From the NCBI GenBank assembly GCA_963402885.1, contig OY727100.1, forward strand, positions 20,059,665 through 20,123,664: DNA of 64,000 nucleotides. The letters run 5' to 3'. The notes under the pieces were generated by a model that had not been told where the DNA came from, did no database searches, and saw only the letters and a list, made by a program, of their open reading frames with translations. Positions 1 through 56,850 of this stretch are shown here, one piece after another; within the stretch, counting starts at the first letter, position 1, and each line of letters starts with the position of its first letter. This DNA is from Antedon bifida (Eukaryota > Echinodermata > Crinoidea > Comatulida > Antedonidae). The position numbers and the translations under genes were made by a program.

Positions 1-2590
1 AATATGCGGATCTTGATTTAAAAACCAGTTCTTTTGGAAATATTATAAGTAATGAACAACAAACTCCGTATATGGAAGTGTCCGAGCTGGGAAAGCTTGT
101 CAAGAAAGGTATAATGCACATAATTATTTTTAAATAGTTTTTAATGTTTTAAGGTTGCTATTTATTAGATTTAAATAATTTGAATAATAAATATTATTAA
201 AAGGTGCTATTTGGTGCATTTATATTTACATTTTCAATTGTCAGAATACATACCGGTACACAAAACTCTTTGAATATTTAACGGACCCTGCAAATAATTG
301 CAATTTCATTTTCATAAATGCTGACGATGCGTTGTATATATTTAATTGGTTGTTTTTTTTATGGAACAGTAGGAAAATCAGGAAAAAAACTTAAAGAAGA
401 TAACTGCAAGGTATTTCTTATTTTTAGGCAATATTAAGTAAGCTCTAACCAAAAAGTGCATTTTTTATTTAGATATCTATTATTACTATACTGACAAAGC
501 ATACGTATATTTCATTTAAAAAAAATGAATTTTACACCCTTTAGAATTTGATAACTTAAATAACATTTTTTTTTATTTCTCTAATCAAATATTGCTTTTT
601 CTTAAGTTACTTAATATGTATTAATGTATTTAGTTTATGATAATTTATAGAAAGAGATTCAATATGCAGATCTTGATTTACAAGCCAGTACTTCCGGAAA
701 GATTATAAGTAATGAACAACAAACGCCATATATGGAAGTATCCCAGGGAAGGCTTGTCAAGAAAGGTAGCCTAATAATATAGTGGTATTAAATAATACAA
801 ATAATAAATGTTTTTAAATGTATATATTAATTGTATAACTTTTATTTACAAAAATTAATTTGAATTTGTCATGTCCTGTTGTCCACAGCATTTTAATTTG
901 TTTTTTATTTTTGTATAATTATTTCAATATTTCTTTATTTTTTGACATTTGTGATTGTTGTGTTCTTCTTCATTGTTTCATACTTCATATTATGAGTAGA
1001 GCACATCAATATAAAATTTTACTGTTAAACTAAATATTAATTAAATTTTCACCATTAATTTATTATTATTTATTAAGGTAAATAGTAATCAACATGCACT
1101 TGCAATTAAAAAAATTTAAATACAAAAACTAGGTTCTGTCCTCACCACAGCTAACATTAACTTTATTCTTTTATTTTTCTAGCAAGAGACTCAAGTGAAA
1201 GGTAATTTCAATTTCAAAAAGTACTTAATTATAAGTACACATTATATTTTATGTTAGTAAGCACGGTAGTTGTAGAAAAAATACATTTCATTTACAAACG
1301 ATTCGTTTTTTTCTCATTTAATATTTTCTTTTAATACCAAAAACTCGTGTGTATATATATGCCACATAAAATCATAATCACATTGAGTAATTTACCATTT
1401 TTCCTATACTAGTACACACACAAAATTGCCTTGGTTTAAAATTATAAAGGGAGATTTAATATAAAATTGTCTGGAATTTTGACATTTATTTTCTGTTTTA
1501 TGATTTGTGGGTGTTTATCTTTTCTCCTGTTATTTGTGAAATGTTATCATCATTTTTTTTACCATCTTGTATTTATATTTTCTGCTAGTTAGTTAATGTT
1601 ATTAATCTTTGCTGACGGCTTACATCTAATATTACTGTATGTCCTCTTTAAAACATTATCATAACAGAAATATAAATAATTCAGAATTTAATCATTACAC
1701 TGTCGCATAAAATAAACCAATTGTGAAAGAAGTAGTAGTAACATTATAATAATCATTAGAAATAATAATGATATTACTGTTTCCATCGCCAGTATCATAC
1801 ACATTAAGGCGGTTTTGTTCATTTATTTCACTTTCTGCAGACAATAACATATTTTAGAGTGGCTTTGTGTTGTTTTTCTTTTGGTTAAGATGCTTTATTA
1901 AATCATGTAGTGTGGTATTTGAACTTACTTTGGTATACTTTGTTAGTAGGTGCTTTTTTACTATATAAAAGACAATCATTACACTAGCTTGCATTAAAAA
2001 TTATTTCGTAAAAAATTACATTGTATATTAAGTTACCTGTCACATCAGTAATTAAACCAAACAGGTAAAACATGATTGTTGACATTCATGTTTATGTTAT
2101 AATCATCAACTATTGATTATAATACTGCATTGAGTTGTATAATTCTTCAAAACGCTTTATTGATATTTCCAGTAAATACAAGATGTAATTTTATTTTTCC
2201 ATTAATAAATAACCTTCTATGCGGAGGTAATGATACCTATAACATGCCTACGGAATCAATGCATGCTAGACATGTAATGTCAATATCGGTATCATTTCTA
2301 CTTCATGTTTGTATAGTAGCATGCTGCACATAGTAGCATGATAGATTTTTTTCTATAGATAAATCTATTTGCGCTTTGAAGATGATTTCATTTTGTATGA
2401 CTCTTTGCAAAAACAGATTACGAGGTGTATATGTCTGTATTACAATACAACGTATTATGAAATTGTATATGCATGTTTAGAGAGTAAATGTTAAAGTTAT
2501 ATATTTATAAGAACTCCTATTCAAGTACCTGTTTTAAATCCTACATATTTCCCCAATTTCTTTTTTTTAGATCTAAAACTTCTTACGCAA
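1..2590 (+). CDS. 3' cytoplasmic-tail exons of an ITIM/ITSM Ig receptor (partial)
   Basis: Exons read in phase are 1-108 (cut by the window edge), 370-410, 651-765, 1183-1201 and 2571-2590, each with AG/GT borders. Exons 1-108 and 651-765 are duplicates. Each encodes QYADLDL, then about 20 residues later TPYMEV, and ends LVKKG. In exon 651-765 the first motif is IQYADL, an ITIM (I/V/L/S-x-Y-x-x-L/V); TPYMEV fits the ITSM pattern TxYxxV. Such motifs recruit SH2-domain phosphatases or adaptors in vertebrate immune receptors; the role here is inferred. The ectodomain and membrane exons must lie left of the window. The exons match 54256-54284, 54454-54574, 55270-55384, 56851-56869 and 58118-58134 in the second cassette, while the introns do not, so they appear to be real exons. 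No stop codon was found; the last exon leaves phase 1 and could splice into the exon at 3136. Confidence 0.72.
651..765 (+). other. ITIM + ITSM signalling-module exon
   Basis: This 115-nt exon (phase 0 in, phase 1 out) begins KEIQYADLDL and holds TPYMEV before ending VKKG. The first tyrosine fits ITIM and the second fits ITSM, about 23 residues apart, close to the usual ITIM-ITSM spacing. It is the same size as exon 55270-55384 and is near-identical in motif layout to exon 54454-54574. The tail was evidently built by tandem duplication of this exon. Confidence 0.75.
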
Positions 2591-3135: not shown

Positions 3136-6100
3136 TGTTTACTAATGGTAGAGGAAGAATCAGTTTAATATTTCCAAATCCTGTGCGATCTGATTCAGGG
3201 AAGTACAACTGCAACATAGAGGGCAGTAGACAGCAGTGTCGAGGTGTCAACAATTTGTCTTTTTATTGTGAGTGTAACTAATTTTGGTTTTCATTATACA
3301 CAATTTAAAAAAAAGTAAATTTCATCAATTGCATATTGTCTTAATGTTGTGTTTGAAGGGGTTAAGATGGTAAATCCAAAGTACTCAGCAGAACATGGTA
3401 CCAGTGATTTTGAAATGAAGTGCAGATATGGACCAGCAGATATGCCATTAACAGGTTACAAGTGGAAGAAGATAAAGAAAGATAGTACAACAGAGATTGA
3501 GGATTGTTCTAAAGATGGCAGATTTGAAGTAACAAGTTACCAAAATAACATTCTGTCTTTGAAGATAAAGAATGTCATACCTGGTGATGCTGGGATATAT
3601 CAATGTGAAGTGAAACCACTTGATGGAGAGAAGAAGCTGGAGGATACTACACCGCTAGAAGTTAAGAATGGTAATTTTTACAATTCCTCTTTTTTTATAT
3701 TCAAAACTGATATTGACGTTGTTGTTGTCGTCAGTACTATTATCTAAATTGTAATTTGCGCTGTATACCGTGGTTACCTGAACGAGCGGTGAACACTGTT
3801 TTAACACATGCACAAATACGATGTTTTGTTTCTCTTTTCGTTTCCTTTATTCTCTCCGATGTTTTAAATCTACCGGTAGAGAAAGAAAGCAGTCGAATTA
3901 CAAATCGAGAAGTAGAAACGCATTCATGTTTGTACCGAGCTAGTTTGACTCTATTTTCACAAGATAGTGTATTTCTTGTTTACTGTTGACCATTGTTGTT
4001 TATTTATTAGTTTTCTTTTCTTGACTTACCAATACAATAAAATCTCGAATGTAACAAATGCGTGTTTGATAATAATGATATTTATAGTTTCTTCATTTTT
4101 TTTATCTATAGATCCTTTCGTATTGAATATTCCTGATGTTATTACCAATGAAGGTGTGAATTATGTAAAAGTGTTCTTAGCTATGAAGAAGGTTGATGAT
4201 TCTGCTATAATATCCAATATCAAGTGGTATAGACAAGGTAAAGCAAATACGCTGCTGACGTCATTGCAGTCACCTGATGGTCCAGCATTACGCTATCAAT
4301 GTGGGCATGTGGATAAGGACAAGGTGTACCTTAAGATAATGAATGTTGAACTTAAAGATGACGGAAGATATACATGTGGTGTGCAAGTAGAAGGAAGACA
4401 GAAAATATACAGTTGTTCTGGAAGATTAACGGTTCAAGGTATAGATAACGTTCTGTAAAATTCTGGAACCTTTCATTTTGTATATTTTGCATAAACTTTT
4501 TCATCTGTACTGATTATACTTCCTAGAATTTTTGACCAATGGGTTTTAAGCAGTTCTTTATAATAATACAATATTACCTCCATTAGTAAAGGACATTTAA
4601 CGAAGGACAAACTACTGTATATTTTTAATTTCTTGCCATAGTTCCTGATAACATTCTACAAGTAACCCATCAGGGTCTTCATCTTAAATAATAAATGTTT
4701 ACTTTCTTCATATGTCAATTGATTGTAATGTATTTTATATTTATTTATGTTTTTTAGTTCATTTTTACTGTACGTCACAGTTTCATTATTGTTGTTTTGT
4801 ATTATCCTATCTTTGGTCTTTTCCGCACACGAATCGCTTCCTCCTTCAGACTATATATACACAGTACCGACATGGCAACGATTTTCCTAACTTCCAAACA
4901 TGTGTCTTTTAGATATTACACAGACGACATACAGGCGCATTCGGACATTGAGATACCTTACGCTCTTTTAGAAAAAAAAATGTATATAATTAATGGCGTT
5001 CTCAAAAACTTGATCATGAACAATCTTTAAAATAACTACTACACGTTAAAACAATGGATATTCTCAGCCATATGGTAACATTTCGTATACATTGAAATTG
5101 TATTAATTTTTTTTTATTTACTTTTTACATTTGATTACAGATCCAGTCTTGAAAATGAGGAATAGCGAGTACTCGTCTTTTACAGGCGTAACTGCAAAAA
5201 TTCATTTTGATATGTCGCCAATACAACAACGAATTAAAGCATTTATTTTTTACAAAATTGAATGCAATGAATGGAAGGAAATTGATGAAAGTCTTATCAT
5301 TTTTAGCAGATTTAAAGTTAAATATAGTAAGAAAGAGCAGACAGGTTTTTTGGAAATCTCTGAAGTTAAATCTTCTGATGCTGGTGACTACCTTTGCCAA
5401 TGCGTGACAGAAGGAGCGGACAATATAACTTATTCAGCAATAAGTCACAGCCATCTACAAGTTGGTAGAGTCTGTAAGTATACTACAATTATAATTTCGA
5501 GATGTTTACCCATTAAAGGATTGTAATTTCGTTATGCTTCTGCAATATGCTTCTAGTTAGCAAAAGGACTATTGAAAATAAAATCTATGTAAAGAAAAAA
5601 AATGTTACACAGTATTAACGAAGAAGAAATTAAATCACTGTTTACAAAGAAGTATATGTCTTTTTTTAATTTTAATCCGAAACATTATATTATTATCTTT
5701 TAGATATGGGAGATGCAACGTCAGGATACATGCGTATGCAATGTACGTATATTAAAAAATATTTTATTAGACAATCACGACTTCAATAATTACTGACCCA
5801 TCTCTAAATTAAGCTTTTGACAATTGGTTGCTTCTCATCATTGTTATTAATGGTTTTTGTTTTTAAAGTGGAGGTGTTTCCTACAGCTAGTGAACCAGGT
5901 AACACATACAGGTAAATTTTGTTAATACCAGTTTAATACATTTCTTAATTAAAATGTCTTCAATTTTCTTAAGAATAATTTTGATATTATCTAGATGTTT
6001 TGAAAATGCATGATGAACACAACTACCTCTTTTTCCGGTTTATCCGGAAGATTTCGTTAAATAGATCTATGCTTGTCTTTCACCATCATGCATTTTGTTG

Positions 6101-9100
6101 TTTTTCCATACAGTAAATTTGTAGTTTTGTTACTAATTGATATAAAACTATTAAAATAATTTAGTTTTAAATATATATATTTTTCAATCAATATAATGCA
6201 TATATACACTTTGTACTCGTTTTTTAGACATCCTACAGTAGTCAGAATAAATTCTCATTTTCTTGTCTTATGTGAGAAAAACAACTCGGATGTCATTATG
6301 AGTAGAGGAGCTATGAACGAAAAGTATTTGATTGCATTTGAAAAACCAAAAGTGATTTTAAATGAAAATGATACAAGGTAGGACTACTATAATTACGACG
6401 ATGATGACGACGACGATGAGACCTACCAGAATGTGGGCATTATAAATATGTTTTAGGCAAAAATTACTTACTTTTGTAACTTTTATTTGAGATGTGTACC
6501 ATTGTAAAATATTATAAATAAAAATGTAACCTTAAAAAACATTTTTTTTTGTTCTGTGATGATTCTTCATATTTAAATGATTGAAAAGGTTGTTCCTGTA
6601 TTTTTTCCTAATACAGCTTTCACAATATAGTGCCAATTACCACGAAAAGGGGAAACCTTATTCTAATGTGTGTTAAAACAAATTGTAACACAAAAAAGAG
6701 GAAGTTAATAATGATAAAAACTGCCGATAATGGACACAGTTGGAAAGGACCAAATGATGTAAAACTAGATTTGACAGGCATTCCAGTAGATAGTCTGAGT
6801 AAGTAGGCATGTTTAATTGCAGTTTTTACACAGATAGAATTGATTTAATTAGCGGAGATATCTCATTTTCACATAGGCAAGTATTTGGTTTTTAGTCTCA
6901 TGCAACGCGACTCTACAGCTCACTTATGTTGATCGGATGGTCGGATGGTCAGTCGGTCGGTAAACACTAACGCAAAATTGAGCATACGACTGCAGCCACG
7001 TATAATTATGGCCTTGTTCCACAAGCAAGAAGTAAAAACTTATTGTAATGTATAATATTTGTGTTTCACATTGTTTCCAGGCCTTGGTCATGGTATATGC
7101 TTAGATTCAGGAAAATTGGTTGTTGCAGCTGTTTGGAAACTGAAAAATAATGAGAGTAAGAATAGTAGGCCTAAATATATGAAAAAACATAAATGTTTTT
7201 CCAGGACTTTCATTTATCATTTATGGATTTATTTTTTGGGAATAGGCACAATGTTTACATTAATTTGTAGCTGCAAATTCGTAATATGTTATAAACATGA
7301 AGGTCATCATTAATTCTGAAGAGCTGTAAGATATTTTTCAAATTTTTAGACGTCATAAAATGAAAAATGTTTCTGTCCCTTGAGAAAGATAATTGTTTGA
7401 TAGATATTATTGAGAGAAGATTAGGCACGGATAAGCGAGATGCGCTCTGTTAAATGTGATGATCTATGGCTTAAGAAAAAAGTCCTATTTTATAATCCAG
7501 GTTGCGAAATTATATTATAACATTTTTCACTTCAAACATGTACATGAATACATATCTCAACTCATTGTCATGGTTACATAATAAGTTTAAAAGACAAACC
7601 CACAAACAAACCCACTGATGCATAAATCATAAGATAACAAGAAATGAGGTCATGATCGATAACAACAATAACATCTTTGTATCGCCCCGTTACTAATAAT
7701 ATTTTCATCTACGCAAATGGTTATCCTATAGTTCTATAATATTATTTTTTCTGATTTCTTTTGTTTTATGTTAAAAAAAACTTAACTACTATATCGCCGA
7801 TTGTTGTTGTCCTAGTTGAATGGGCATTAAGTTTGGAAAAGTGTTTTCTACACCATTTTTACCACTAAATTGGATCTAAAATGGCGGATAATAGCCTTTA
7901 TTCAATTGCGGTCATATTGATATTATGAATGAAGTATTTTTTATTCAATTTAAATTATTGATTATTTATTTTACAGATAAAGTAATTGTAATGACAAGTA
8001 CTGATGATGGTGACACCTGGAAAATGTTTCCTCCTTTTAAACCATTAGGTGCTACCTTAGGAAAACAAATACAAGTAAGAATAAAAAGATTCACACATGG
8101 GTTTCATTTCTCAGTGGATTAATAATAACATTGTTGAATCACAAAAAACACGTGCAGATTGATTGCTATAATTTCAACTATATAAATATTCCATTTATTT
8201 GTTAGGTTCTTGAATATGCAAACGATCACATTTTGATCCTCTGCTCATTGAAAGACTGTAAGCACTGTTTTCAAGCCTACAATGATGATGGATTTGAAAC
8301 GTTTAGCGTGAGGATTCAGGATGAATTGTTAAAGTCAAACCCAAACTGCAAGGTACAGTGTACATCACGATTAATACGTAATAGTCGACTTGTTGTTGAT
8401 CTATTGCGTATTTGCTAAAAATCATAACCATACTTTTACCACCGTCAATATTAGGATCACACACAAAATCAATGAAAATAGGTAAAGTAATACTTGATCA
8501 TAGAACTTATGATAGTTTGGACGTCTCGTCGTACAGCATGCAGAACGATGGACAGGAGATTCGTCTGGATCAGTGCGGGATGTCGCGTCGAATTGTGAAA
8601 GATTCTGAGCAGACAACAGTAGAGACTTTTAGATTTTCACGTCGACAATGTCGACTGCTACCCTATTACGTCATGTTTATGATATGCGCTTGGCGACTGG
8701 TACGTCGACTGGCAAATTTCAGCTATTCTTCAGTGGCATTTTGACGTTCTCTCTGTCACATGAACCAGTGAACGTATGACGTCATAACACTGCAAATGTT
8801 TACCAAAAACCATGGCCGAGTATCTCGCGATGATTTTTTGAGAATGTAGTATTTCAGTCAAATTATGTTTGCAAACTGTGAAATACTGATTTGTATCGGT
8901 TATTTGAAATAAAGCTTTGAGTAATACAGGTTATGGCCTGGGTCACTAGGACACCAGTCTTCATTCAGAAAATTTAGGGCCTAGGGAGGCTAGGCCTAAG
9001 CTACACACTGACCTAAGCCCGTGTATTTTCAACATTCCAGCGTGGTGGTGGAATAGCACAACGGACGAGCGCTACTTAGGTCATTACGTCATACGTTCAC

Positions 9101-10032
9101 TGGCACGCCAACGTTAATGTCCACTTAACCTAAAATGTGCACATACTGTCGACAAAGAGTAGACCCATGTGGACGTGTTACAGTCGACTACGCCCCATGT
9201 GGACGTGACTGTCGTGTGCACGTTCACTCAATTTAAAAGTCCCTATTATCATTCGAACTATTATAGGAACAATGTTTTTTTAAGCGGGGGGCTTTTAAAC
9301 ATAGTGCCATCATCAATCATTTTGAGACACGGGCTACGGGGACTTAATGTAGGGGAAATACTGGGACGGTTGGCCCAAATGATATCTATATATTTTTTAT
9401 TTGGATCGGCAATACTTTCACCAAGTATAATTAGATGTTTAAATGTAGTAACTCTAAATAAGAATACACTTTTAAATTAATGAATTAATGTAGTACTTTG
9501 ACCTCTTACTGATGTTAAAAAAGATTAATACAGAGAATTTGTACTTACAAATATTTTTAAAAACATCCATTATTTGTACAAACAGAATATTTTTTAATTA
9601 TTTAAATATTCTCTACTCGCATTATTCACTTTTTCACAGTTATTTATTTTCAAATTTTAATTTTAAATGTCTTGAAAATGTACTGTTTATTGTATTGTTA
9701 CTCAACTCTATTATTACCAGGGTGGTATTGTTCGCTTACCAACAAAGGCCGGTAAGTTCGACAAGGTAGTGATGGCAAATCATGGAAAAAAAACAAAGGA
9801 ACTTACACTTTACTTAAGTGAAGATGGCTGTAAAACCTGGTTTCAGTCATGTGCACTTGAAACAGATGCAGAAACAGAAGAATCTGACCTAGCTTACTAC
9901 AGTGTAAAAGAAGGGAAAGAAGAAGCAAAGGTAATAGTGTGTGTTTACAGTTATGGTTCAGAAACAAAGGGTTATAAGATTGGAATGCAGTTAATTTACA
10001 AAGATGAAATTGTGTATGGAGTGCCACATTGA
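3136..10032 (+). CDS. Ig-domain protein with C-terminal sialidase-like domain
   Basis: Twelve exons join in phase: 3136-3267, 3359-3670, 4112-4438, 5141-5473, 5704-5742, 5869-5911, 6228-6377, 6617-6798, 7081-7155, 7977-8074, 8206-8352 and 9721-10032 (stop TGA at 10030-10032). They give 715 residues from the first complete codon. Residues 1-44 are only the second half of an Ig domain (SDSGKYNC). The exon at 3359 is a full Ig domain (KCRYG, KWKK, DAGIYQC). The exons at 4112 and 5141 are Ig-like, with DDGRYTC and DAGDYLC but no clear strand-B cysteine. Residues from about 382 are sialidase-like. All Ig exons are phase 1-1, typical of shuffled extracellular modules. No transmembrane segment was seen. 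The start codon and signal peptide were not found: the first exon needs an upstream phase-1 exon, either an unrecognised one or the tail exon at 2571. Soluble secretion is the simplest inference. Confidence 0.78.
6894..7020 (-). repeat. Dispersed repeat, copy 1
   Basis: In reverse complement this intronic stretch reads AACAAGGCCATA, then TGGCTGCAG, GTTAGTGTTTACCGACCGAC, then AGTGAGCTGTAGAGTCGCGT. The same order of words occurs at 10764-10837 and 39144-39232 on the + strand. It holds a tandem GGATGGTC. No coding capacity is seen. Confidence 0.7.
8765..9103. repeat. Foldback in the last sialidase intron
   Basis: A 21-bp arm at 8765-8785 (CCAGTGAACGTATGACGTCA and one more base) is the reverse complement of 9083-9103 with one mismatch. 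The arms enclose about 300 bp. Other GTCGAC and CATGTGGACGTG words lie around it (8520-9215). It is probably a non-autonomous hairpin element inserted in the 8353-9720 intron. Confidence 0.5.
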
Positions 10033-35070: not shown

Positions 35071-38000
35071 GCTTTAGAAGCTGTATGTTTCCTTGTAACA
35101 TTGCTGTTTATTCAAGGTGAGCTGTTTTTCATGAAACTTTTTTTTAATGTCTTCTCTGTTTAATATGTCATAAGTGTTTCATGTTTTGTATTTTTATGTG
35201 CTTTTAATTCTAATTTTATATATAAAGAGTTTTAAGGCATCCTGTAATTGGCGATTTTGCGCTGTTGGATGTGGTTGAAATTAAATTAAATAAATTATGG
35301 TAAATGTATGTAACTCTAATTGGATGTGTGGATCTTTTTGGTCTAATACAGTATCAAAACAATCAAAATCTCTTTTCAACTGTACCTACTTATACTACGT
35401 AGGTTTAATTGTTTAAAGCATGATTTGGTGGTAATTATGCCTAAATACCTAAATTTGATATTCTTATCTTTAGAATCACGTGGTCAGTTGGTGACAACAT
35501 CTGACCAGACAGCCAAGGAAGGTGATGCTGAAGTGGTGATAACTTGTGATTATTCACAATTTACTTCTACACCTGAAGGAATAGAGTGGAATGAGCTAGA
35601 TGAAGATGGATCTACCAACATTGTGAATGAAATAAAGATAGAAAATGATCGTTTTAAATTAAACAAAACACCTGGGAAAGCTGACTTGGTGATGTCACAG
35701 CCAACAAGAAATGATTCTGGACGAACATTTAAGTGTGAGATACAAACAACGGTTGGAGATATTGAACAATCAAATCCGTCTATTCTAACTGTATATTGTG
35801 AGTATGGATTATTTAATTTCAATATCATGACATTCATTTGACATTCACTGAAAGTAAGTTTGAGATTTACAGTAATATTTTTTATTTTAAATAGAAATGC
35901 ATAATTTTGTACCAAAATAAATTGTTTTATTTCTTTTAATTATTTACTAATTTCAATTTTAAAATAAAATATTGATATTAATTTGTTTTAAATAAACTCT
36001 GTGCTGACGATACTATAAAGACCACTTATTTCTACTAAATCCTGGATACCATACAGTACTTATTTAAAGTATCAATAATATAACAAATTCATTACTACAG
36101 TTTTACAGTACTATCAACAAATTGGATATATTATTACCAATACTAATTTAGCATTTCACTAAAAATGTGTTAGTGTTTTTAAATATCCATCAAAGATATC
36201 TTTCAGTTGCTATGTGTAGTGGTTTATATTTTGCCATGCTAAAAATAATAATTGTGCAACAAAATATTAATTCTTCAAAATATTTTCTTTTCAAAGAGTA
36301 AAAAATAAAATGATGTATTTTTTTCTGTAGGCCTAGCATTTCTTTTTATTATACTTAATTCATACATTTTATTTGTTCTTCTCAGACTTAGATCAACCAC
36401 TTCTTGATGCCTCAGCAAGCACTGTGTATGAAGGTCAATCAGTGACCTTTACCTGTAGTAAACCTGATGGTGATCCTACACCTGACATTACTTGGTATAA
36501 AGATGGACAGACAGTCAACACCAACAACCCTTCTAGATATGAGTTTGCAAATAACAGTACAGAGACAGTTCTTAAGATTAAATCAGTTACTGAAGAAGAT
36601 GGTGGGAGATATACATGTAAAGCAGAAAGTGATCAGTTTAAAGGAGAGGATGCTAAAACAAGTGAAGGAAAAGACTTTACTGTATATTGTATGTACAACA
36701 TTATTAAATATCAACTAATCTGTGTACATTTATTAATTATAATTAAAATATTGAGGTTGTGAAATTTTGATCTATCAAAATTGCCCGATTTTTGTATCTT
36801 TTTACTAATTGAAATTTATCAAGTAGTAAAAATGCCTGTGGTATATTATCATCATAAAAATGTGCCTTTAAAAGTAGCATTCCAAATGCCAACTTTATGT
36901 CAATGGCTACCAGATGTCTCTATGTAGACAATTACTTGAACCTGTACCAGTACTATCTGTACCAGTTAAGATACTGTATGAGTTTATTGTTTGTTAGTAC
37001 TCATGTATCAACAACTTCTGTTGTTTGATGAGAATACAGCAAAGTATTAACTATTAGTATGGAGTGCATTGTCATCCTATCGGCCTACTGTATTTCTAAA
37101 AAAAAAAATTGAGTACAGAAATTTGAGGTGTTTAAATAAACATGAACTAAAACTAGTTTTTAAGTGGCCAGCTTTACATTTTATTTTTATCACTACATTA
37201 TATATAAGATGTGCATTCACACTGATTTGTTAATTTGTTTAGATATTGCTGTTACCTTTGCATCTCAAGATGGTATTGCAACCTGTACAGCAGAGGGCTA
37301 TCCCAAGCCATCATTAGTAAAAATATTACGAGATGGAAAAGTGGTTAACAAAGGAAATAATTCAGCAACTATAGAAATTATTGATGAGATATGTCAATCA
37401 ATTCTTACATGCTATGCAGTAAATACAAGGCTTAATGACACAGTAACTCTAGAGGAGTGTAATGCAGGTAAATTTAGGCATATTCATGAAAATTATATTT
37501 TTCTTAACTTCCTTTAATTCCTTCCTGAAATTTTTTTCTGTGTGCATAATAATACTCATATAGAGTATGCACAGTCTGCCTACATATTGCATTTTATGTT
37601 TCTTTTAAATAATTTAATTTCATATTTAACGTTTTGTGTACACTGTTAGAAACATTTATTCAATAGTATTTGTGCATATCACACTGTTTTGTCAGTGGCA
37701 TCATACAGTATTGTTAACTGTATGTGCATAAATTTAAACATTAGATATCATGTTTGTATAGAGGCAAAAACTAGAAGCAAACAGTGGCGCCCACTTTAGG
37801 ACAATAACACATCTCATAAAAGAAAGTTCCATTTTTGTGTTGCAGTACAGTACATGTGAGAATCATGGGGCTTTAATACTACTGGATTTTAAGCAATTGT
37901 GAATGATGAAACTAGTAAAACTTACAAGCTAAAGTCTCACGTGTTTTTATTGTAGGCCTGACATCAAAATCAGATGATTTTGCTGGTAGCCAGTTTGGTA

Positions 38001-41000
38001 TGCATATCTAAATAATGAATCCTAATAAAACTTAATTAACATTCAATGTTTGGCAGCCATTTTTTTTTCATTACTTCTGCTATTGAAAATAGCATTTTAA
38101 ATTTTGAAATCCTTGAATTTTTATTTATTCTTTTAAAGTTTTATTTGATATTCTTATGTTTCTAATAACATATTAATATATTTGGTTATCCTACAAAGTT
38201 CTAAAATTTAAACAAAGGAAGTTGTACAATGTACACAACACTTTCAATTTCAGTTTGCTTTGTTCTTCCTTGTTTCACTGTTATTATTAGAAACAATTTC
38301 ACTCTCTGAGAATGGACAACTTAGGGAAATAACCTGCATTTAAAAAAAATCTCATTATAGCAAGTACCTATAATCTCCCAAAATTACTAATGTATTCCAA
38401 TTTATATTTGGATTTATCAGTGGTTCTACTCTACTAGTATTGTTGTTGTTCAAACATAATGCTACAGTATCAATGATAAAGAGCTGATGTACAGTATGGT
38501 GCTCCCTTTTGATGGCTGCTTTTTTATTAACTGAAAAGTGTACAATTACAGAATGTTTTTAAATATAATATTTTTAATTCCAATTAGCATTTTTTTTATC
38601 AGAATAATGTTTGCATGTTTTTATTATTTCACTTAGATATCTAAAAAACCAAACCAATAAAAAATAAAATAAAAATACAAACTTTCACTCATTCTATTAT
38701 ATGAAATTCATGTTGCTACCACTTGCTATTCACCTACCCACTCATTACAATTTAATGACGCCCATTGAAACATATTTATTTAGAAAATAATGAATTTAAT
38801 TATAACAATACATATGCAAAGAAAATTAACAAACCCATTATTCACAGAGTATACTAATACTTAATTCCAGTAAACATTGGAATCCACATAGGAATTGATA
38901 TAGATAGGCCGAAAGGACTGATTGTTTGATATAATTGTCTATCACAAATCAGTCCTTAGTAGTAGTAGTAGTAGTGCTAGCATAAATTTTCCTAACATAG
39001 CATACATTTTTGACAAAATTTAGCATCTAGCAAAATGATCTATTCTATCTAGGCATATTAGTGCAGCTTTTATGGCATTTGTGTTCCTAATTTTTCCATT
39101 ATTTCTCAATTTAATGAATTTGATCGTGATGTCAAATTGGTAAAACAAGGCCATATACATGGCTGCAGACACGTGCTCAAGTTAGTGTTTACCGACCGAC
39201 ATAGTGAGCTGTAGAGTCGCGTATCACGCGACTAATAAATGACTGTCAGTATACAGATTTTCACCATTATCTAACTTGCTTTAAATTGGGTAATGCTTTT
39301 ACTGTATATCTGCAACAATGGCAGAAAATTCATCTGTATTACCACATTGTTTTACTAGGCTTAACTGAATGACTTCCTTTATTCAATTTCCTATTATTTT
39401 CTAGATGAGTAAACAATTTAGTTAGATATATAATAATTCACAATTCTTCTATGTTAGGATTAATTGGGTCATCCTGAATCATTGTGATTTTTTTGTATAT
39501 AGATTCAAAATAAACACATTACAGTGTACTGTAGTTCCTGTATTATAGTAGCCACACCTACAAAATTAATAAATGTAAAATTGTATGATTATCAATGATT
39601 AATATATGTAAAATATCATATTTGACTTACTAAGAGTTGATGATTTTCTGGCCAGCATTTTAAAATATTTTATTTCTTTTGGTATTTAAAAGTTAGTGTA
39701 ATAATTTCATTATAATAAGAATAATTCTGTTTTAAGCAATACCTTAGCTTTTAAAAAATGTATCTGTATTTTAATAATGGAAATCTTGAATATTTTTTTA
39801 TATTCTCAACAGGTGCTGGATCGTTCATCCTCATCCTCCTGATTGTTGTTGTTGTTGTTGGTTTGTTCCTATGGTTACTGCTTCTTGTTTGTAAGTAAAG
39901 TATCATCTCCCATATTTAAATATTTGCCTCATTTGCATAGCATGGCATATAAGGTTATCCCTTAATTGTTTTATTTTTAAATGCCCCATTTGAATTCAAT
40001 AAGGTATGTCTGCCTCAGTGCTCTTATATGCACAGTGAATTAAATAATATTTATATAAATTTCATAGCATTTAGTATGCGTATTTAGATGGAATTTAAAT
40101 AAATATAGTTTTCTTTTAAGATTTTAATATTCATTCATTAACATTATTCATTATACTGTTTTATACCATTTTTTTATTATTTCTTCATTCAGATTTTTAT
40201 GTAAAAAAAATGAATGTCCATGATTAATGTAGAATGTATTATAATAATTGATAATATCTTCTTTGTTTATTTGTTTACACCATTTTAAATTCTCGTTGGA
40301 AACCAATTCCATATGTTCTGGAAAATATTAAACAGACAATGCCAGAGAACAATAAACAAATTATTCTAGATGGAATAATTTATTTTCAAATAATATATAA
40401 AGTTTAATAATAACATTAAAACAATGTTAAATATTAATGATAATATTTTACTTTTAGATTATATGCATTACAAGAATATTGAGTGGAGTAATAAAGATAC
40501 AGTGACAGTTGAAGGTGGTAAACCAGTTGTGATGAGTTTTAAATATCGTCCAAGTATTGCAAGGTTCAAGACTGTTGAAATAAAGAAAGAAAAGAAAGTG
40601 ATTGGTTCAAATCAACAGCAATTCAGTAGTTGTAAAACAGTCTGTCAGTTTGTCTGTTATTGCTGTCTTTACTTTTGTGGATTTTGTTGTATTGAATACT
40701 ATGACAAATCATGTAAGTTATTACATATTTTTTATTTATCCTAAAGTATATTATTATTTTTCATACAATACCATTTTATTTGATCTTTTTTTTCAGATCA
40801 TCAGTTGAATAATGTAATTATTAGTTTTTATTGTAATTGTTTTTTTGATAATAAAGAGATATGTAATTTGTAAATAATGATTTTATATTCAGTTTATTTA
40901 TTCATTTTCCTTTTTAATAAAATGTTTTAGGTACAGTTTATACAATTCACTTTGTAGTAACATCTAGGGAGAGAGAAAATTGATTTGATTCTTAAAAACC

Positions 41001-44000
41001 CCAGCTGTATTTGATTCAATATATTCTATTAATAGTTAATACACTAACTCTTTGTTTCATGTCATAGTTGAATACAACAGTAAAGATAAAAGGAAACATT
41101 TAAGCAGGTGAGTCTATGTTTTTTTACCATTGTAACATGATTACATACAGTATTTTTCATATTTTAAATTTTAATCGGAGTATGAAAAACTCACACAATA
41201 AATATAAAAAACAAAAAAATGTTTATTATATGAACCCTTCAGCTGTGGCAATAGAGGAGTGAAGAGTATCAGATGATGGTGAGTGAAAGATAATCTGATG
41301 GTACAGATGCAAGTCCTTCTTGTTGTAGTTTAATATTATTATCTTGTATTGTGTTAACCCTACAGCAGTGGAAGTGGTGAAGAGTATCCGATGATAGTCA
41401 CTGAAAGAGAACGTCCTGATGGTGCAGAGGTCCCTGCTGTTGTAATCAAATCAAGTTTACCTAAGCAGGCTGTAGGGTCTGAAGACACTGCTGCACTTCC
41501 TAAATCTGGAGAAACATCAAAGGTTGGTACTATGAGAATTGAAAATACCATATATGAATAATTATCTATTGTATATCATATTGGATCTGTCGTATATAAA
41601 TATTGGTATATCTGTCGTATATAAATATCTACTCCCAAACAGTACTCTTAAAATGCCAGGTCAATAGTTAATTCTACCATTATTTTGTGTTTAAAAAAAC
41701 ATTAAATTATGTCTAGTTATTTTGTATGTTGATACTAATAATTGTGTTAAACATTACAGTCTTTTAAAACATCCTTAAATGTAAAATCTGTTTCAATTTA
41801 GTTTTTGAAGACAAATCCTGTTGAAGAAGGTAGTGAACTTTTAGCAGAACATCAAGAGACATCTGGTGGGTATAAACTTTGCTATTTATTCTCTTGATTA
41901 CTTTTTTTTAGCTTCAGGTGGAACATGAATAGTTTATTTTTTACTTGATATTCATTCCAAAAAGTCCTGTTTCAATAGAGTTGAATGTATATCTCTTACT
42001 TCAATCAATCAATCAATCAATCAACTTAATTATTTTGTTTAGATTTGACTTACTCTCTATGAGTTATAAAGAGTATACATTTATTGTAGAATTTGTTTTT
42101 AATAATTGATTGTTACAGTAAACATTAACATTAACTATTCTGTCTCAGAAATTAAATCATTGTATTGTTGAAATTACTAATGAAGTACAGGTTTATTTAT
42201 TTTTTTATTTATTAGAAGTTATTAAGTTATTAATATTACAATATCTATGTTTGTTCTATCTTTATTTAAGGAGAACCCTTCAACATCGGTCATACAGTAA
42301 GAATCTTTATTTAAAACTTAAAAAGCGCAGTGGCATGCACAAAAAAATGTTTGAATATATATATTGTTATACTATTTTTTAAGTTATGTAATCACAATTT
42401 ATATGACAGTAATTGTGTAAAGACATATTCATCATCTTTGAAGCATTTATAGAAAATATAATCTGTGTCTATCTAGATTCCAGTATTAAAATTAAGTTTT
42501 TTTTTAAATGTGTAAATATAATAATCAAAGCAATGTTGATTCAATGGTGATTGTGAGAACCCAGTCCATCCCAGTAGTGGTTACCCCATTGTACTGATCC
42601 ATCTCAGGCCCTGTTTCACTTTAGCCCAGTTACGCTGCAAGCCGCCGTTTATTCACAACATTAGGCGCTTTATAAGTCCAGGATATTATTACTATTGTGA
42701 CTTGGCCAAAATGTATTTACAGGATGACATAATTTATGAAAACGTTGAATCTGGTTCTTCTATGTCATTTGAACAACCTGTCACTTATGCTGTTGTTGGA
42801 CAGCGTGGCAGAAAGTCTACCGGTGATGTCATATTTTTAAAGACAATTTTGCTGCTTATTAAGTACAGTAGCAAAGTAGAAAAAAAAGCTAAAAAATCAC
42901 TTACTTTTATTATTCTACAGTATTCACCCAGTGAGTGTATTTTTGTAAGAATATCATGGTTAATCTTGTCATTGTGGACAGTTCTGAGATGATTTCACTG
43001 CAATGTGTAATGTTTACTAACAACTGACCAAACATTTATTAATAACCTTTTTTATTGTGTTGCTGTTTTTTTTACTAATGCATTTGTATAGCATAGAGTA
43101 GAAATAGACAGCTTTCAATTTTTCCTATCTAACTACAAAACCTATATGTGCTGCATTTTAATCTACCCATGCTTTTATTTTTGTAAGTGGACTGTTTTTT
43201 AAAAATATATAATTGTTCTGTTTGGTATATTAATTTTATAGTATTACATTAGCATAGCATTTATTTATTATATTTTTTTTCTTTTGTAACAAAAAACATA
43301 TTTAGCATTTAGTCAGAGTCATAGTTCATTGGTTTGATGTGTTGTTCAATTCAATTCAATTCAATTCAATAGACATTTATTTACAAAATCTGAATACATA
43401 CAGTAGGAAAACAAGAAACAGGATTGTACAGAATTATAAAAGTGTATCAGAAAATGAAGGCAAAAGCCCAGAAAGATGTTTGTAACATCTTGTGTTGGGC
43501 GAGCCTTAACACAAATAAAAAAGAAAAGAAATGCATTGAATAAAATCATAATAAATTTCATAATCTAAAATATGAATAACCGAAAAAAAAAAAAATCTGT
43601 TGGTACTGCAGATCGAGACATGACCGATTAATAAATATTTAATAAGTAGAAAAGGTGTATTTTTTTAATTTTGAGAGAAGCATCTTAGGGGAAGCAGATT
43701 TTAAAATGGAGGGTGGTAGGTTGTTCCATAGGGTGGGTCCAGAGTATCGAATGTTATGTTGGAAAAAATTTGTTCTATGAGAGGGTATAGATAATTTATT
43801 TTTAGTACGTGTGTGATGGGAATGATAGAAGGAATTGGAAGTAAATATATAACAAAGATGGTGAGGAAGGATGTTGTTTAAGGCAGAGTAGACAAAAATG
43901 GTTTGTTGAATTAAGTTGATATCATTAAGTTTGATGAGATTAAGATTTGAAAATAAATGAGAGGAATGGGAAAGCGGAGGCGCGCCAGATATAATTCTGA

Positions 44001-47000
44001 TAGCCTTCTTTTGGAGGGTATGCAATTTATTAAGGTTTGTAGGGTATGTGTTGCACCAAACAATATTACAATAACTCAAATAGGGAAGAATCATAGAGCA
44101 ATACAGGATGCGTAGGATATTAGGGGGTAAATATGAAGACAAACGAAAAATAATACCAAGGCTTTTGGAAATTTTGTTTTCAGTTACACTAATGTGTGTT
44201 TTCCACGTCAGGCCAGAGTCAAGATGGACACCTAAGAATTTTGCTGATTGAACAGAGGGGATGTTTATATTTTCAATGGTAATATTGTATAGTGATGGGT
44301 CAACATTTTTTAACTTCTGGGGGGTCCCAAACAGGATGAAGTTACATTTTTTATGGTTTATAGAAAGTTTATTAGCAGCAAAGTATTGGGACAACATCTC
44401 TAGGTGGGAGTTGGTAGTATTAAACAGAGTTTGGATTTCAGGGTGAGAATAAGTGACAGTTGTGTCGTCAGCGTATAGGTAAAAATCAAGTAATGGGGAA
44501 GAAAGATAGATATCGTTAATGTACAGAATAAATAAAAGGGGACCGAGTAAGGAGCCTTGGGGAACACCACAAGTTACATGATTGAAATTAGAGATTGAAT
44601 TGGAGAATTTTGTGCATTGGACACGATTAGAGAGGTAACTTTTGAAGAGATTTAAAGCAGGGCCACGGATTCCATAGTGAGATAATTTGAATAAGAGTAT
44701 ATTGTGATCAATTGTATCGAAAGCCTTGGAGAGGTCTATAAAAATTCCTAATGTGAGGTGACGGTCTTCGAAACCATCAACAATTTTATTAGTTAGGTCG
44801 ATTAGAGCGGATGCAGTATTGTGGCTTTTTCTAAATCCAAATTGTTTTTTGTAGAGAATGTTGTATTTATTTATGAATGAGGACGTACGTTCATAAATCA
44901 CTCTCTCCAAGGCTTTCGAGAAAATTGAAAGAATTGAGATAGGACGATAGTTGGAGAGATCAGATTTGTTTCCGGACTTATAAATAGGAGTAACGCGCGC
45001 TATCTTCATCCTGTCTGGGAACACACCATTAGTTAAAACAAGATTAAAAATATGGGATAAAGGGAAAGAGATCAAATTGGCGACATATTTAATGGGTTTA
45101 GTTTTAAAATCGTCAATGCCAGGGGATTTGTTTGTTTCAAAGGATGTGATAATTTTTATAACTTCCGTCTCATCAACTGGATTAAGAAATAAAGAATTAT
45201 GAGTTGGATTTGGCAGAAAGTCTTTAAATGAGTTGTTGACATTGGGAATTTTGTTAGCAAGGGAGGGACCGATTTCTACAAAGTATTTGTTAAAAGCATT
45301 ACATATTGTATTGGGATCTTTAGTCAGTTCACCGTTACAGTTGATAGAGATATCAGAGTTTCGATTATTGGGGTTTTTGAGTAGTGAATTGATGGTTTTC
45401 CAGGTTGCCTTGATATTATTTTTATGTTTAATGAAAGTGTCCTTGTAATGTGATTTTTTAGCCAGTTTGACCAAAGTATTTAGTTTATTGCGAAATTTTT
45501 TGTATGTTTTTTCATTGGCGACAGAAGGACAGTGGAGGAATTTAGAATAAAGTTTCTGTTTATATTTAACTGAATTTAGCAATCCATTAGTCATCCAGGA
45601 TTTTATTTTATTTTTTTTTTTTTTTGATTTTTGGAGGGGAAAGTGTTTATTATAAAGTGATTTTAATTTATTGTCAAAATTGTTATATGCAGTGTTGGGA
45701 TCGTCAGTATTTATAACTTCAAGCCATTGTTGTGAAGCCACATCAATGCGAAAGTTTTCCAGGGATGTATAGTTTATTTTTCTGAACTCATGAATTTCTT
45801 CCCCATCTGAGCCAGTTGGAATATTATTAATAAAAGAAATATTGAAAACAGGAAGATGATCAGAGATATCACAATACAGTAAACCACTTATGTTGTGATG
45901 ATCGAACTGATTTGTAAAAATGTTGTCAAGCAGAGTAGCAGTGGTTTTAGATATACGGGATGGCTTGTGAATACATGGAAGGTAATGGTTACTAAACAGT
46001 GAATTTATAAAATGGCGGGCTTCATTATCAAATTCATATTTGAGAATGTCAATATTGAAATCGCCAAGGATATACACAATCTTGTTTTCTTTGGATAATG
46101 TGGAAAGAACAGAATCTAATTCATCTGAAAATGTGTTTGGGTCAAAAGAGGGGGGCCTATAAACTGTTCCAATAACGATGTTTTTTAAATTTGGTCTGGT
46201 AATTTCGATAAAAATTGATTCGCATGTAGAGGGGTGTAGAGTCAAGTCATTTCTTGTGGAATACTGAAGGCTATCACGAATATACATGGCAACGCCACCA
46301 CCGACTTTATGGTCTCTGTGATTTGCAGTAAAATGGTAATTAGGGAGCTGTACAAGAGGGTTATCATATTTAAGCCAGGTTTCACTTACACCAATGACAT
46401 CAAATTGATGCTTTGTTGATTCTAAGAGTTGTTTAATTTGATCAATGTTTTTAAGGATACTTCTAGAGTTAAAATGAATTGTAGAAAAGCAGTCAGATTT
46501 AGTATTCGGGAATGAGTTGGGGTAGTAGTATTGAGATAAGTTTTGGTCGTTAGAGAAAAAATGTGTATCAGGATCAATATTAGTAGTAAAATTGTCAGAA
46601 TCATTTAAAAAGGGTGAAAAAATTAGGTTGGTTAGTCGGTCATGTTCCGAGGTGCTAGAGTCTATATCATTTGCATAGTACATACCAAAAAAAAAAAAAT
46701 ATATGTGTTACAAAAACAAAAAACTACGACTTAACGTACTTAAAAAAGAGAAAAAAAAAAGAATCAAAATTGCAATTTAACATTTGGTTAAAATTAAGTT
46801 AACTGATATTGATAAAAAATATGATATGATGAATGAAAACAACAAAAAAAATTAAAAATAATTAAAATTGAAAATGTTGGAGATGTGTATTTATGTTTAA
46901 AGTGTTAAATTGTTATTATTTTCCATTCAAAAAGTATATAGGCTATCTTGATGCTTGGCATTGTTTCCCTGGCTGACCACTTCCTCTTCTCTTCTGTCCG

Positions 47001-50000
47001 CTTCATCTTCTTCATGACTCTCATTCGTGATCCAGCCACTCTCACCAGTTTAATAATAAAAACATTGTCAAACAAAAGTTAATGACGAAAATAGAAGTAA
47101 TAATTATGATAATCAAAATAATGATTGATAAATGAAATTAAAATGATGAATAATATGAAGGAAAAAGAAGAGCGTCTTTTATGAATGTTGTTTTCAGTTA
47201 TGAGTTTGTGTTAAGTAAGGAGTACTTAGCTGTTTGTTGATCATTCCTGATTTGGGCGGAGACTCAAAGATGGTTGAGGTCAGAATCTGATCTGATGACG
47301 ATCTTTTTCTTGTTCTTTAGCAGACAGTGTACTCTTCCATCTGTGGACCATGCAGCTTCAACCGATTCATTACGTGTTGCTTGTAGTGGTTCTCCCTTGA
47401 CACAACAATAAAGTACTGACACACAACTTATCTTTAAACTATAACTTTAATGTATTCCAAGTATACGATTGTATCGCCATGTTATGTGTGTCTTATCAAG
47501 AGTCGCCATAGGTGGCGCTATACTAGTTTTATCAATTACATATCATTACACCTTCCCTCTTCAAATGAAGTGGTTATTAACTTTTATTTTGTGTTTATGT
47601 TCTGTATGATTTATTAAAGTACTTTGGGTTTGGTTTTGGTATGCGGTCACTTCTACGCAATGTTGTAGTTGTGTTGCTTGCTTCTGAGTGACTTTTCTGC
47701 TTTTGTGCTTTTGATTGATTTTGCTGCTCATCTTCCTCCTCCTCTTCAGTTTCATTTGTGGTGGTTGGTTGAGTTTTGAGAAGATGTTTCCGGTTTCGTC
47801 TGATGAGTTCTCCAGTTTCTGTTTTAACTATATATGATCTGTTAGGCAGAATTTTTGTTACAATTCCTGTCTTTGCCCATAGTGGCCTGCTAGCTGTTGG
47901 TTTATCCATGTTCTGCACTCTCACTGTGTCTCCTACTTGTAGAGGTTCCATTGCCTTTTGTGTAGATTTTTTGTCAAAGTTTTTCTTTTGCCGCTGTTTC
48001 AACTGCATTGTCTTTTTCTTCAATGACTCTGTTTCTACAATTTTCGGTTTAAGTAGGGTAGGGTTTATAGGCAGATTGGACTTAATTTTTCTGTTGAAGA
48101 GTAGCTCTGCTGGAGACACTCCATGTTCAAGCGGTGTACTTCTATATACTTGTAAAGCCATATGTAGATCTTCACTACTATCTTTTACTTTACGGATCAT
48201 AGTTTTCACTATTTTGACGGCGTTTTCTGCTTGTCCATTGCTTGCAGGATGATGAGGGCTTGAAGTTGTGTGCTTAAAATTCCACAATTCTGCAAACTCT
48301 CTGAACTCCCTACTGGCAAACTGTGGACCATTATCACTGATCAATTCGATTGCTGTACCATGTCGAGCAAAGATCGATTTGATGTTTTTTATTACACTTT
48401 TACTTGTTGTATTAGTGAGAGTAGCCATCTCAATATATTGTGAGTAATAGTCAACTATTACGATATAATCTTTGTTGTTGAGCTCAAACAGATCAGCACC
48501 AACCTTTTCCCATGGTCGGGATGCTAGCTTATGCTGTTGCAGTGGCTCTGTTGATTGCCGTTCTCTGTATTTAATGCAAGTTGAGCATTTCTCTATCATC
48601 TGGTCGATCTCTTTATTTATATTTGGCCAGTACAACACCTCTCTTGCTCTACGTTTGCACTTTTCTCTACCCAGATGACCTTCATGTATCTTATGAAGCA
48701 TCAAACGTTGGAGACAGACGGGAATGACAACTCTTCTTCCTTTGAATATGATACCACAACTCACTGACAACTCGTCTCTATAGTTCCAGAACTCGGTAAT
48801 GTTTGAGGGACATTGTTTTCGCTTTTCTGGCCATCCTTCTAGAATTGTTTGTCTTAGTTGTGTGAGGGTAGCATCACCTTCAGTTGCAGTTTTTATGTTC
48901 TGCATCTGATTTGGTGCTACCGGTAGCGATGTCAGTATCATGTTGATATATGCCTCAATGTCATCTTCTAAGTGTTGATCTTCTTCAGCTACAGTGGTCT
49001 TGTCCACAGCTCGTGAAAGTGCGTCTGCTGCCCATAGCTCTTTACCTGGAGTATAGGTTAGGTTTAGATCATATTTCTGAAGCCTAATGCGCATTCTTTG
49101 AAGTCTGAGTGGGCTGTCAGCAAGTGGTTTTTTAAAGATGGAGATAAGGGGCTTGTGGTCAGTTTCTGCTATTACCTTTTGGCCAAAAAGAAACTGGTGG
49201 AATCTTTCGCAGGCAAATGTAAGTGCTAGGCACTCCTTCTCAATCTGAGCATAACGTATTTCTGCATCTGTCATTGACCGAGATGCATATGCAACAGGTG
49301 CCCAGTCATTGTTATGTCTCTGTTGTAGCAGAACTGCACCAATTCCATCCTTAGATGCATCAGCTGATATCTTGCATATCTTTGTTGGATCATAAAATGT
49401 GAGCACTGGGCTCGAAGTCAGAGCTGACTTAACATTCAACCATGCCTTTTCTTGAGCTTCCAGCCACACCCAGTCATTTTTGTCAATCAGGAGCTGACGT
49501 AGTGGTGCTGTCTTCACTGACAATTCAGGTAAGAACTTCGCTAGATAATTGGCCATTCCAAGAAATCTTTGAAGAGCTTGCTTGTCAGTTGGTCTTTCCA
49601 TATTGTTAATGGCTCTTACTTTACTAGGATCCGGTCGGATACCCTTATCTGTAATCAAGTCACCCAAGAAGATTAGTTCGTTCACTCCAAACTCACACTT
49701 TTTTCTGTTGAGCTTCAGGTTAGCTTTCTGTGCTGTATCTAGCACTTGCTTGAGTCTCTGATCATGTTCGTTTTGTGTAGATCCCCACACGATTATATCA
49801 TCCATCATCGTGTTTACTCCATCAATCTTTTCAAATAGTCGATGGACACGTTGATGATATGCCTCAGGCGCCATATTTAGACCAAATGGTAATCTGCGAT
49901 AGACATATCTCCCGTATGGTGTGATGAAACATGTTAGTTTTGAACTTTCCTTGTCCAATTTAATTTGCCAGAAGCCTGATGAAGCATCTAGCTTGCTAAA

Positions 50001-56344: not shown

Positions 56345-56517
56345 ATTGACAATTTACACAGACAAGCGGTAACGGTAATGTAGAATCTATGTTATTTCTT
56401 ATGACCATTTACACAAAACACTTAGCGAACAGGTGGTTTCCACTCAAGATAAAGACAGATTGTGGGACACTATGCAGTTTTCCGCTTACCGTTACCGCTC
56501 GTCTGTAAATTGGCCTT
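56345..56517. mobile_element. 173-bp MITE-like element
   Basis: AATTTACACAGACAAGCGGT, followed by AACGGTAA, is inverted at the right end as TTACCGTTACCGCTCGTCTG then TAAATT. The interior is non-coding. It lies between receptor tail exons and the next Ig exons. Confidence 0.65.
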
Positions 56518-56850
56518 TAAATTATTTTAGGTTATTTGAAATTGTAATCAAATATTACTACAACATTATATCTCAATTTTAAAAAAAGTGATCATACTAG
56601 GTCTTACATTTACTTAGACTTGGTCAAGTTAAAATGTTATTATGTATTGTCATAAATGTACCACTGTATTTTCATAACCTAATCCTAATGTTGTTTGACA
56701 TATTTGATATTTGATAAGACAATGACCACTCAAATTCTTATAATAATTACTTTACTATATAGCTTTTGTATTTTTTTGTTGCTATATGCCATCACCACAG
56801 CCGTTGTCTAAGTGTTGTAATATTTTTTTTTTTTTTATTTCATGTTCTAG

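What the first reader, a model, noticed from the sequence alone, without database searches (positions are those of the whole stretch)
3136..10032. Ig domains fused to a sialidase-like domain in one gene
Twelve exons join in phase from Ig units to a beta-propeller with YRHP, Asp boxes and a final stop. I know of no described animal protein with Ig domains followed by a GH33-like module. Standing beside ITIM receptors, it suggests a sialic-acid recognition system reminiscent of Siglec biology, by inference only.
Basis: partly seen in the sequence, partly recalled or inferred. Interest (0 to 1): 0.9.

Follow-up and report, generated by a model that had tools for sequence, protein, structure and literature searches.

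The report
Feather-star receptor with sialidase-like tail
A feather star carries a family of genes that appear to join an inhibitory-type immune receptor, extra immunoglobulin domains and a sialidase-shaped but probably inactive module in one protein, a combination I found no description of.

Summary
The 12 exons splice with canonical sites and matching phases into 715 aa of Ig domains plus a sialidase-type propeller. Five annotated proteins of the crinoid Antedon mediterranea carry the same fusion.

The gene is larger than reported. The "ITIM receptor beside it" is its own 5' half: 27 exons chain in phase over about 18 kb into 1,337 aa: signal peptide, three Igs, transmembrane helix, four ITIMs, two ITSM-like motifs, then the reported Igs and propeller. 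The unit recurs: 13 of 17 places with the membrane exon are followed on the same strand by the terminal sialidase exon. Five A. mediterranea models, from at most four genes, continue from membrane region into the second-half Igs.

The Siglec reading is not supported, but not closed. Two triad Args and the acid/base Asp are not kept in the rows aligned; the first Arg is; six MAFFT settings leave a Tyr at the nucleophile place. Probably a non-catalytic binding module on an inhibitory receptor. Membrane side, and whether one transcript spans both halves, need RNA and protein data.

The parts
1..108 (+). exon k (begins 13 bases before the window): ITIM IQYADL and ITSM-like TPYMEV
   Evidence: same exon in copy 2 at 54454-54574
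373..410 (+). exon j' (short linker exon, phase 1 to 0)
   Evidence: lies between k and l and restores the phase
651..765 (+). exon l: duplicate of k, ITIM IQYADL and ITSM-like TPYMEV
1183..1201 (+). microexon m (ARDSSER) linking the ITIM tail to the Ig-propeller half
   Evidence: score 27 against a null maximum of 15 in 24 chunks; copy 2 has AKDLNER (29); A. mediterranea P0005 has AKDSNER; not recovered in three C7 copies
2571..2590 (+). microexon n (SKTSYA), putative
   Evidence: GT-AG and phase fit, resembles SYSM/SYTM of P0011 and P0010; the scan does not tell n from chance
3136..3267 (+). exon 1: C-terminal half of an Ig domain
3359..3670 (+). exon 2: Ig domain with the usual Cys pair (by eye)
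4112..4438 (+). exon 3: Ig domain without the B-strand Cys (by eye)
5141..5473 (+). exon 4: Ig domain without the B-strand Cys (by eye)
5704..5742 (+). exon 5: 13-residue linker
5869..5911 (+). exon 6: start of the sialidase-type propeller (EVFPTASEPGNTY, first two bases of the Arg codon)
6228..6377 (+). exon 7: propeller; Y-R-H-P across the exon 6-7 join (first Arg kept); acid/base loop missing
6617..6798 (+). exon 8: propeller, Asp box TADNGHSW
7081..7155 (+). exon 9: propeller
7977..8074 (+). exon 10: propeller, Asp box STDDGDTW
8206..8352 (+). exon 11: propeller; Ser at the second-Arg column
9721..10032 (+). exon 12: propeller end, SEDGCKTW, no Arg in the third-Arg stretch, conserved EESDLAYYSV, stop
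35473..59216 (+). second, colinear copy of the gene, approximate ends (continues past the window; its sialidase exons are in L050)
   Evidence: conserved blocks in the same order as the exons

Best explanation
Proposed mechanism: the outer Ig domains bind a ligand, Src-type kinases phosphorylate the tail, SH2 phosphatases are recruited and the cell is restrained; the Ig-propeller half, probably in the cytosol, is a protein-binding scaffold for the signalling complex. Shown: exon order, phases, motifs, loss of several active-site residues, repetition of the unit. Inferred: a single transcript, the topology, the signalling and the scaffold role.
For: 27 exons chain in phase with GT-AG introns and one terminal stop, 1,337 aa. 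Copy 2 has the same linker exons; blastn blocks between the copies run colinear from Ig1 to the propeller. Five A. mediterranea models (P0005, P0006, P0009, P0010, P0011; P0009 and P0010 are isoforms, so at most four genes) run from the membrane region into the second-half Igs, and P0005 and P0006 reach the propeller. 14 of 17 scored terminal sialidase-exon places have the membrane exon upstream on the same strand within 31 kb. Active site: second and third Arg absent in 6 of 6 rows, acid/base Asp in a gap in 5 of 5 rows, against NEU1-type exons of the same genome; partner Glu aligned to His or Gln. dN/dS of the propeller: medians 0.53-0.75 in five comparisons, upper 95% bound below 1 in four. 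Cytosolic side: N-glycosylation sequons 24 against 13.1 expected in the outer Igs of four proteins, 41 against 41.3 in the second half of eight.
Against: No transcript data; NCBI models are predictions. Microexon m was not recovered in the three C7 copies and n does not exceed chance. The Cys-rich stretch has hydropathy 1.86 and is a helix in a low-confidence model, so it may be a second membrane pass that would put the rest outside. Some second-half Ig domains keep Cys pairs, which suits an oxidising site. 4 of 17 membrane-exon places have no scored sialidase exon within 31 kb. The ITIM pattern also matches six places outside the tail (10 in all), so the pattern alone is weak. Six of six MAFFT settings put a family Tyr on the catalytic Tyr of NEU1-type exons, so the active site is not wholly erased. 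For exon 12 alone the dN/dS bound is below 1 in only two of five comparisons. Sequon counts come from related sequences. The start-codon exon was not located.
Confidence: 0.4

Rival explanations
1. The membrane and ITIM exons are an alternative cassette. The locus makes a membrane ITIM receptor and, by skipping the cassette, a secreted Ig-propeller protein that acts outside the cell, for example as a soluble ligand binder.
For: Exons b, c, d, e, f and 1-5 all begin and end in phase 1, so skipping keeps the frame. Exon f carries an N-terminal and exon 1 a C-terminal half of an Ig domain; joined, the P0006 halves score 23.2 bits for I-set against no match and 16.2 apart. A. mediterranea isoforms P0009 and P0010 differ by ITIM exons.
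Against: The five A. mediterranea models that span the region include the membrane exons. The joined scores stay below Pfam's cut-offs, and the window's halves gain only about 4 bits for V-set and lose for 'ig'. No transcript shows the skip. The second half shows no excess of glycosylation sequons.
Confidence: 0.28
2. Two neighbouring genes, an ITIM receptor and a separate Ig-sialidase gene, duplicated together; the joined models are annotation chimeras.
For: Tandem duplication alone would keep two genes together. P0001, P0004 and P0007 begin inside the second half. Microexons not recovered on C7.
Against: Exon 1 begins mid-Ig with a split codon and no signal peptide; the first Met of P0007 would be the codon split between exons n and 1 (inferred). 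Microexon m scores far above the null in copies 1 and 2. blastn at E below 1e-4 finds no conserved block between the copies in this interval that could be a separate first exon; it also misses m.
Confidence: 0.2
3. The two hydrophobic stretches both cross the membrane, so the Ig-propeller half is extracellular and binds glycans or proteins as a lectin-like arm.
For: Cys-rich stretch hydropathy 1.86 and helical in a poor model. Cys pairs in some second-half Ig domains.
Against: It would put the tyrosine motifs outside the cell. Tail dN/dS medians are 0.41, 0.41 and 0.61, the last with an interval that includes 1. Lys-rich stretch after the Cys-rich segment.
Confidence: 0.08
4. A functional sialidase or Siglec-like sialic-acid sensor.
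For: Sialidase fold and Asp boxes; first Arg kept in 6 of 6 spliced proteins (window, P0001, P0004-P0007); a Tyr on the nucleophile column in six of six MAFFT settings; a Glu one residue from the partner-Glu column in most rows.
Against: Second and third Arg absent in 6 of 6 rows and acid/base Asp in a gap in 5 of 5 rows.
Confidence: 0.05

Closest known systems
IgSF inhibitory receptors with ITIM/ITSM tails (Siglecs, CEACAMs, PD-1 type; recalled, with passages of PMC8710542 and PMC12355970 for Siglecs)
   Same: Signal peptide, Ig ectodomain, one strong transmembrane helix, ITIM and ITSM-like motifs in the tail.
   Different: Those tails end after the motifs (recalled); here more Ig domains and a propeller follow.
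GH33 sialidases (C. perfringens NanH and, as recalled for 2bf6, NanI; NEU1 type in the same genome)
   Same: Sialidase fold by sequence profile and model match, Asp boxes, first Arg, possibly the Tyr.
   Different: Second and third Arg and acid/base Asp not kept; NEU1-type genes (name by eye) sit separately on contig C10.
Bacterial multidomain sialidases with an Ig-like module (Micromonospora viridifaciens; named in passages of PMC12355970 and in the reference list of PMC2716378)
   Same: Propeller and Ig-like module in one chain.
   Different: A bacterial enzyme; no tail motifs; no common origin shown.
Amphioxus inhibitory LRR receptor BbLcLRR (PMC8211107, abstract and outline seen)
   Same: Invertebrate deuterostome receptor with ITIM-type tail reported to associate with phosphatases.
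   Different: LRR receptor; no Ig-propeller half mentioned in the abstract.

Membership tests
GH33 sialidase | sialidase-type beta-propeller with Asp boxes | tested here: met
   BNR_2 1.7e-17; PDB sialidase profile match 6.6e-07 over part of the domain; NanH fold match of the P0001 model
GH33 sialidase | Arg triad binding the carboxylate (roles recalled) | tested here: not met
   First Arg kept in 6 of 6 spliced proteins; Ser or Thr at the second-Arg column and no Arg in the third-Arg stretch in 6 of 6 rows
GH33 sialidase | Tyr nucleophile with Glu partner (roles recalled) | tested here: inconclusive
   By spacing from the Asp box the place reads Glu (EESDL, 17 of 17 genomic copies), but six of six MAFFT settings put the Tyr of LAY on the NEU1-type Tyr. 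Partner Glu aligned to His/Gln, with a Glu next to it in most rows
GH33 sialidase | Asp acid/base in the blade-1 loop (role recalled) | tested here: not met
   The NEU1-type Asp falls in a gap of the family in 5 of 5 rows
IgSF ITIM receptor | signal peptide, Ig ectodomain, transmembrane helix, ITIM in the tail | tested here: met
   Exons a-l; four tail matches to (I/V/L/S)xYxx(I/L/V), six further matches elsewhere; hydropathy 3.09 for the helix. Start-codon exon not located; cytoplasmic side inferred
IgSF ITIM receptor | phosphorylation and SHP recruitment | not testable with these tools
   needs cells
Siglec | N-terminal V-set domain with conserved Arg that binds sialic acid | tested here: inconclusive
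   Exon b shows FQCEIQ with no Arg by eye; the ectodomain scores best for generic Ig_3
Siglec | sialic-acid binding | not testable with these tools
   needs a binding assay

The most novel reading that the evidence does not exclude
A tandemly expanded immune-type receptor family whose single chain carries Ig domains on both sides of the membrane: outer Ig domains, an ITIM/ITSM tail, then a cytosolic Ig array ending in a sialidase-derived pseudoenzyme that serves as the signalling scaffold. That would be a receptor with a built-in propeller platform.
Probability: 0.35. Interest if true: 0.85.

Novelty: new variant of a known kind. Interest (0 to 1): 0.72.

Why it matters
ITIM receptors are brakes of immune cells, and I know few described invertebrate forms. 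An echinoderm family that has joined such a receptor to a sialidase-derived propeller, in at least 13 genomic units, shows a glycosidase fold recruited into receptor architecture. If the propeller is cytosolic it would be an inhibitory receptor carrying its own scaffold; if it is released by splicing, one locus would make both a receptor and a soluble partner. Either is directly testable with long-read RNA.

Tried and rejected
Active sialidase or Siglec-like sensor: unlikely because the second and third Arg and the acid/base Asp are not kept, but not excluded. hhalign of the same stretch was not significant and does not decide it. I also drop a count of the first Arg over genomic exon-7 rows, because the intron's own AG supplies that codon; only spliced proteins are counted.

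Chance splicing: rejected because the fusion is annotated in A. mediterranea and repeated in copies. Pseudogene: no stop inside the best matches of the five copies compared, propeller dN/dS bound below 1 in four of five. Against: exon f of the C7a copy matches in two frames, one exon-12 row holds a stop (L006), the L051 comparison mixes exons of two neighbouring copies, and of three copies with real ectodomain matches the interval includes 1 in two (copy 2 and C7b; in C7b exon b matched out of order; L051's ectodomain row is a false match and was dropped). AlphaFold of P0006 to see whether the half-Igs pair: mean pLDDT 47, uninformative. In-exon donor in exon f as a splice switch: GTAGT or GTAAT in 4 of 4 copies, which may only reflect a Ser codon. 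A third homologue search with an alignment found nothing beyond A. mediterranea; with that tool's length and word limits this does not show absence elsewhere. Paper searches: 16, 34, 39, 56, 57, 58, 95, 96; in what was listed no title or start of abstract describes the protein.
Full report
What is there. The protein relatives found, 11 and none new, are from the crinoid Antedon mediterranea, so the window is most likely from a feather star near it. Their contigs differ in length (24.0 Mb here; 28.6 Mb there), so it is probably another species or assembly. The reported 12 exons are real: GT-AG, phases in order, 715 aa, stop at 10032. Pfam finds V-set, I-set and BNR_2. The best solved structures by sequence profile are exo-alpha-sialidases, over profile positions 97-253 of 331, and the model of homologue P0001 (mean pLDDT 60, residues 438-571 poor) matches NanH as its third hit.

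The gene is longer than the finding says. Exon 3136-3267 starts in the middle of an Ig domain. Reading the 20 kb upstream, guided by A. mediterranea proteins, gives 15 more exons: signal peptide, Ig1, Ig2, Ig3, transmembrane helix, a half Ig with a Cys-rich hydrophobic stretch, then exons with EEYQIM, IIYASV, VTYAKV, IQYADL, TPYMEV, IQYADL, TPYMEV, and two microexons. The chain of 27 exons translates without a stop to 1,337 aa. The ITIM pattern hits these four tail sites and six others outside the tail; the case for the tail rests on their clustering after the helix and on conservation in copies, not on the pattern alone. Exons upstream of the window are at C13:20051546-20051594, 20051796-20052125, 20053790-20054092, 20054395-20054619, 20055451-20055522, 20055792-20056052, 20056404-20056428, 20057001-20057142, 20057961-20058066, 20059268-20059305 and 20059652-20059772 (the last runs into the window). 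The exon with the start codon was not located.

Is it one transcript? For: the same order of exons in copy 2, with conserved DNA blocks at exons; linker exons of copy 2 in phase; microexon m in copies 1 and 2 with scores 27 and 29 against a null maximum of 15 in 24 chunks; five A. mediterranea models, from at most four genes, that run from the membrane region into the second-half Igs, two of them into the propeller; 13 of 17 membrane-exon places followed by a terminal sialidase exon on the same strand within 31 kb, and 14 of 17 terminal-exon places with the membrane exon upstream (from; one search scored 76 of 142 candidates, so counts are lower bounds). Against: models are not transcripts; m was not found in the three C7 copies and n is not above chance; 4 of 17 membrane-exon places have no scored sialidase exon within 31 kb, and three terminal-exon places at C13:20318084-20320474 lie about 100 kb from the nearest membrane exon; P0008 has Igs after a transmembrane helix but neither the tail motifs nor the propeller (by eye).

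The propeller is probably a pseudoenzyme. GH33 enzymes use an Arg triad, a Tyr nucleophile with a Glu partner and an Asp acid/base (recalled). Aligned with NEU1-type exons of the same genome, the first Arg is kept; the acid/base Asp falls in a gap in 5 of 5 family rows; the second-Arg column reads Ser or Thr and the third-Arg stretch has no Arg in 6 of 6 rows. The partner Glu aligns with His or Gln in the PDB sialidase alignment, with a Glu next to it in most rows. The Tyr is unsettled: by spacing from the Asp box its place reads Glu in 17 of 17 genomic copies, but six of six MAFFT settings align it to the Tyr of the conserved LAY. Of 16 genomic copies that reach that LAY, 14 have Tyr there, one Asp and one Leu (my count). 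NEU1-type sialidase genes are on C10. The propeller is constrained: dN/dS medians 0.53-0.75 against five copies, upper bound below 1 in four; for exon 12 alone below 1 in two of five.

Which side of the membrane? The transmembrane helix is clear (hydropathy 3.09). The Cys-rich stretch scores 1.86 and is a helix in a poor model. If it is a palmitoylated inner-leaflet segment, everything after the first helix is cytosolic, as the tyrosine motifs need. Sequons are enriched only in the outer Igs (24 against 13.1 expected in four proteins; 41 against 41.3 in the second half of eight). Three of three outer Ig domains keep the usual Cys pair, while of the window's four second-half Ig units one does (by eye). 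Paired Cys in F and G strands of the exon-3 type (by eye) argue the other way. I hold the cytosolic scaffold as the leading but unproven reading, with the alternatively spliced secreted form as the main rival: the joined half-Igs of P0006 score better than either half, though below Pfam's cut-offs, and the exons on both sides are phase 1.

Place among known things. As an ITIM receptor it is ordinary up to the tail; an amphioxus ITIM-type receptor is described (PMC8211107, abstract and outline seen). Bacterial sialidases with Ig-like modules are known (PMC12355970, passages; PMC2716378, passages and reference list); passages of PMC8710542 and PMC11238990 were also seen, other papers only in listings. 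An animal protein with receptor, ITIM tail, Igs and sialidase propeller did not appear in what searches listed (0, 12 of 47, 10 of 33, 12 of 70, 10 of 59 and 8 of 20 papers). I therefore file it as a new variant of the IgSF ITIM receptor kind with a sialidase-derived module, not as a sialidase and not as a Siglec.

Noticed in passing
window 19522-20948, minus strand: Three Ig exons of a further receptor of the same family on the opposite strand; the tblastn with six family proteins, of which two were printed, shows no sialidase match on that strand.
   Followed up: no
window 31552-34746 (+), 43639-46707 (-), 60195-63887 (-): Three long open frames of non-LTR retrotransposon type; two lie inside introns of the second gene copy (type judged by eye).
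   Followed up: no
window 47595-51590 (-): A 1331-codon open frame of Gypsy-type LTR retroelement inside an intron of the second copy (type judged by eye).
   Followed up: no
window 1-108 and 651-765: Exons k and l look like a recent duplication of one exon with the ITIM plus ITSM-like pair, each with its own short linker exon.
   Followed up: partly
C7:10789911-10790113 (L037/L038): Exon f of this copy matches in two frames, so this copy may be broken there.
   Followed up: no
C8:23240000-23268949: A family member with tandem Ig exons and the membrane exon but no scored sialidase exon; P0011 looks like its A. mediterranea counterpart.
   Followed up: partly
L045, L046, L047 (C10): NEU1-type sialidase genes (by eye), four seen, two of them side by side in L047.
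   Followed up: partly
P0005 residues 575-646: SPDPTSVQ repeats inside an Ig domain of an A. mediterranea member, a Cornifin hit in Pfam.
   Followed up: no
exon 12 copies, e.g. window 9840-9930: The stretch around EESDLAYYSVKEG is the best conserved part of the propeller across copies; it may mark a binding surface or the remains of the active site.
   Followed up: partly
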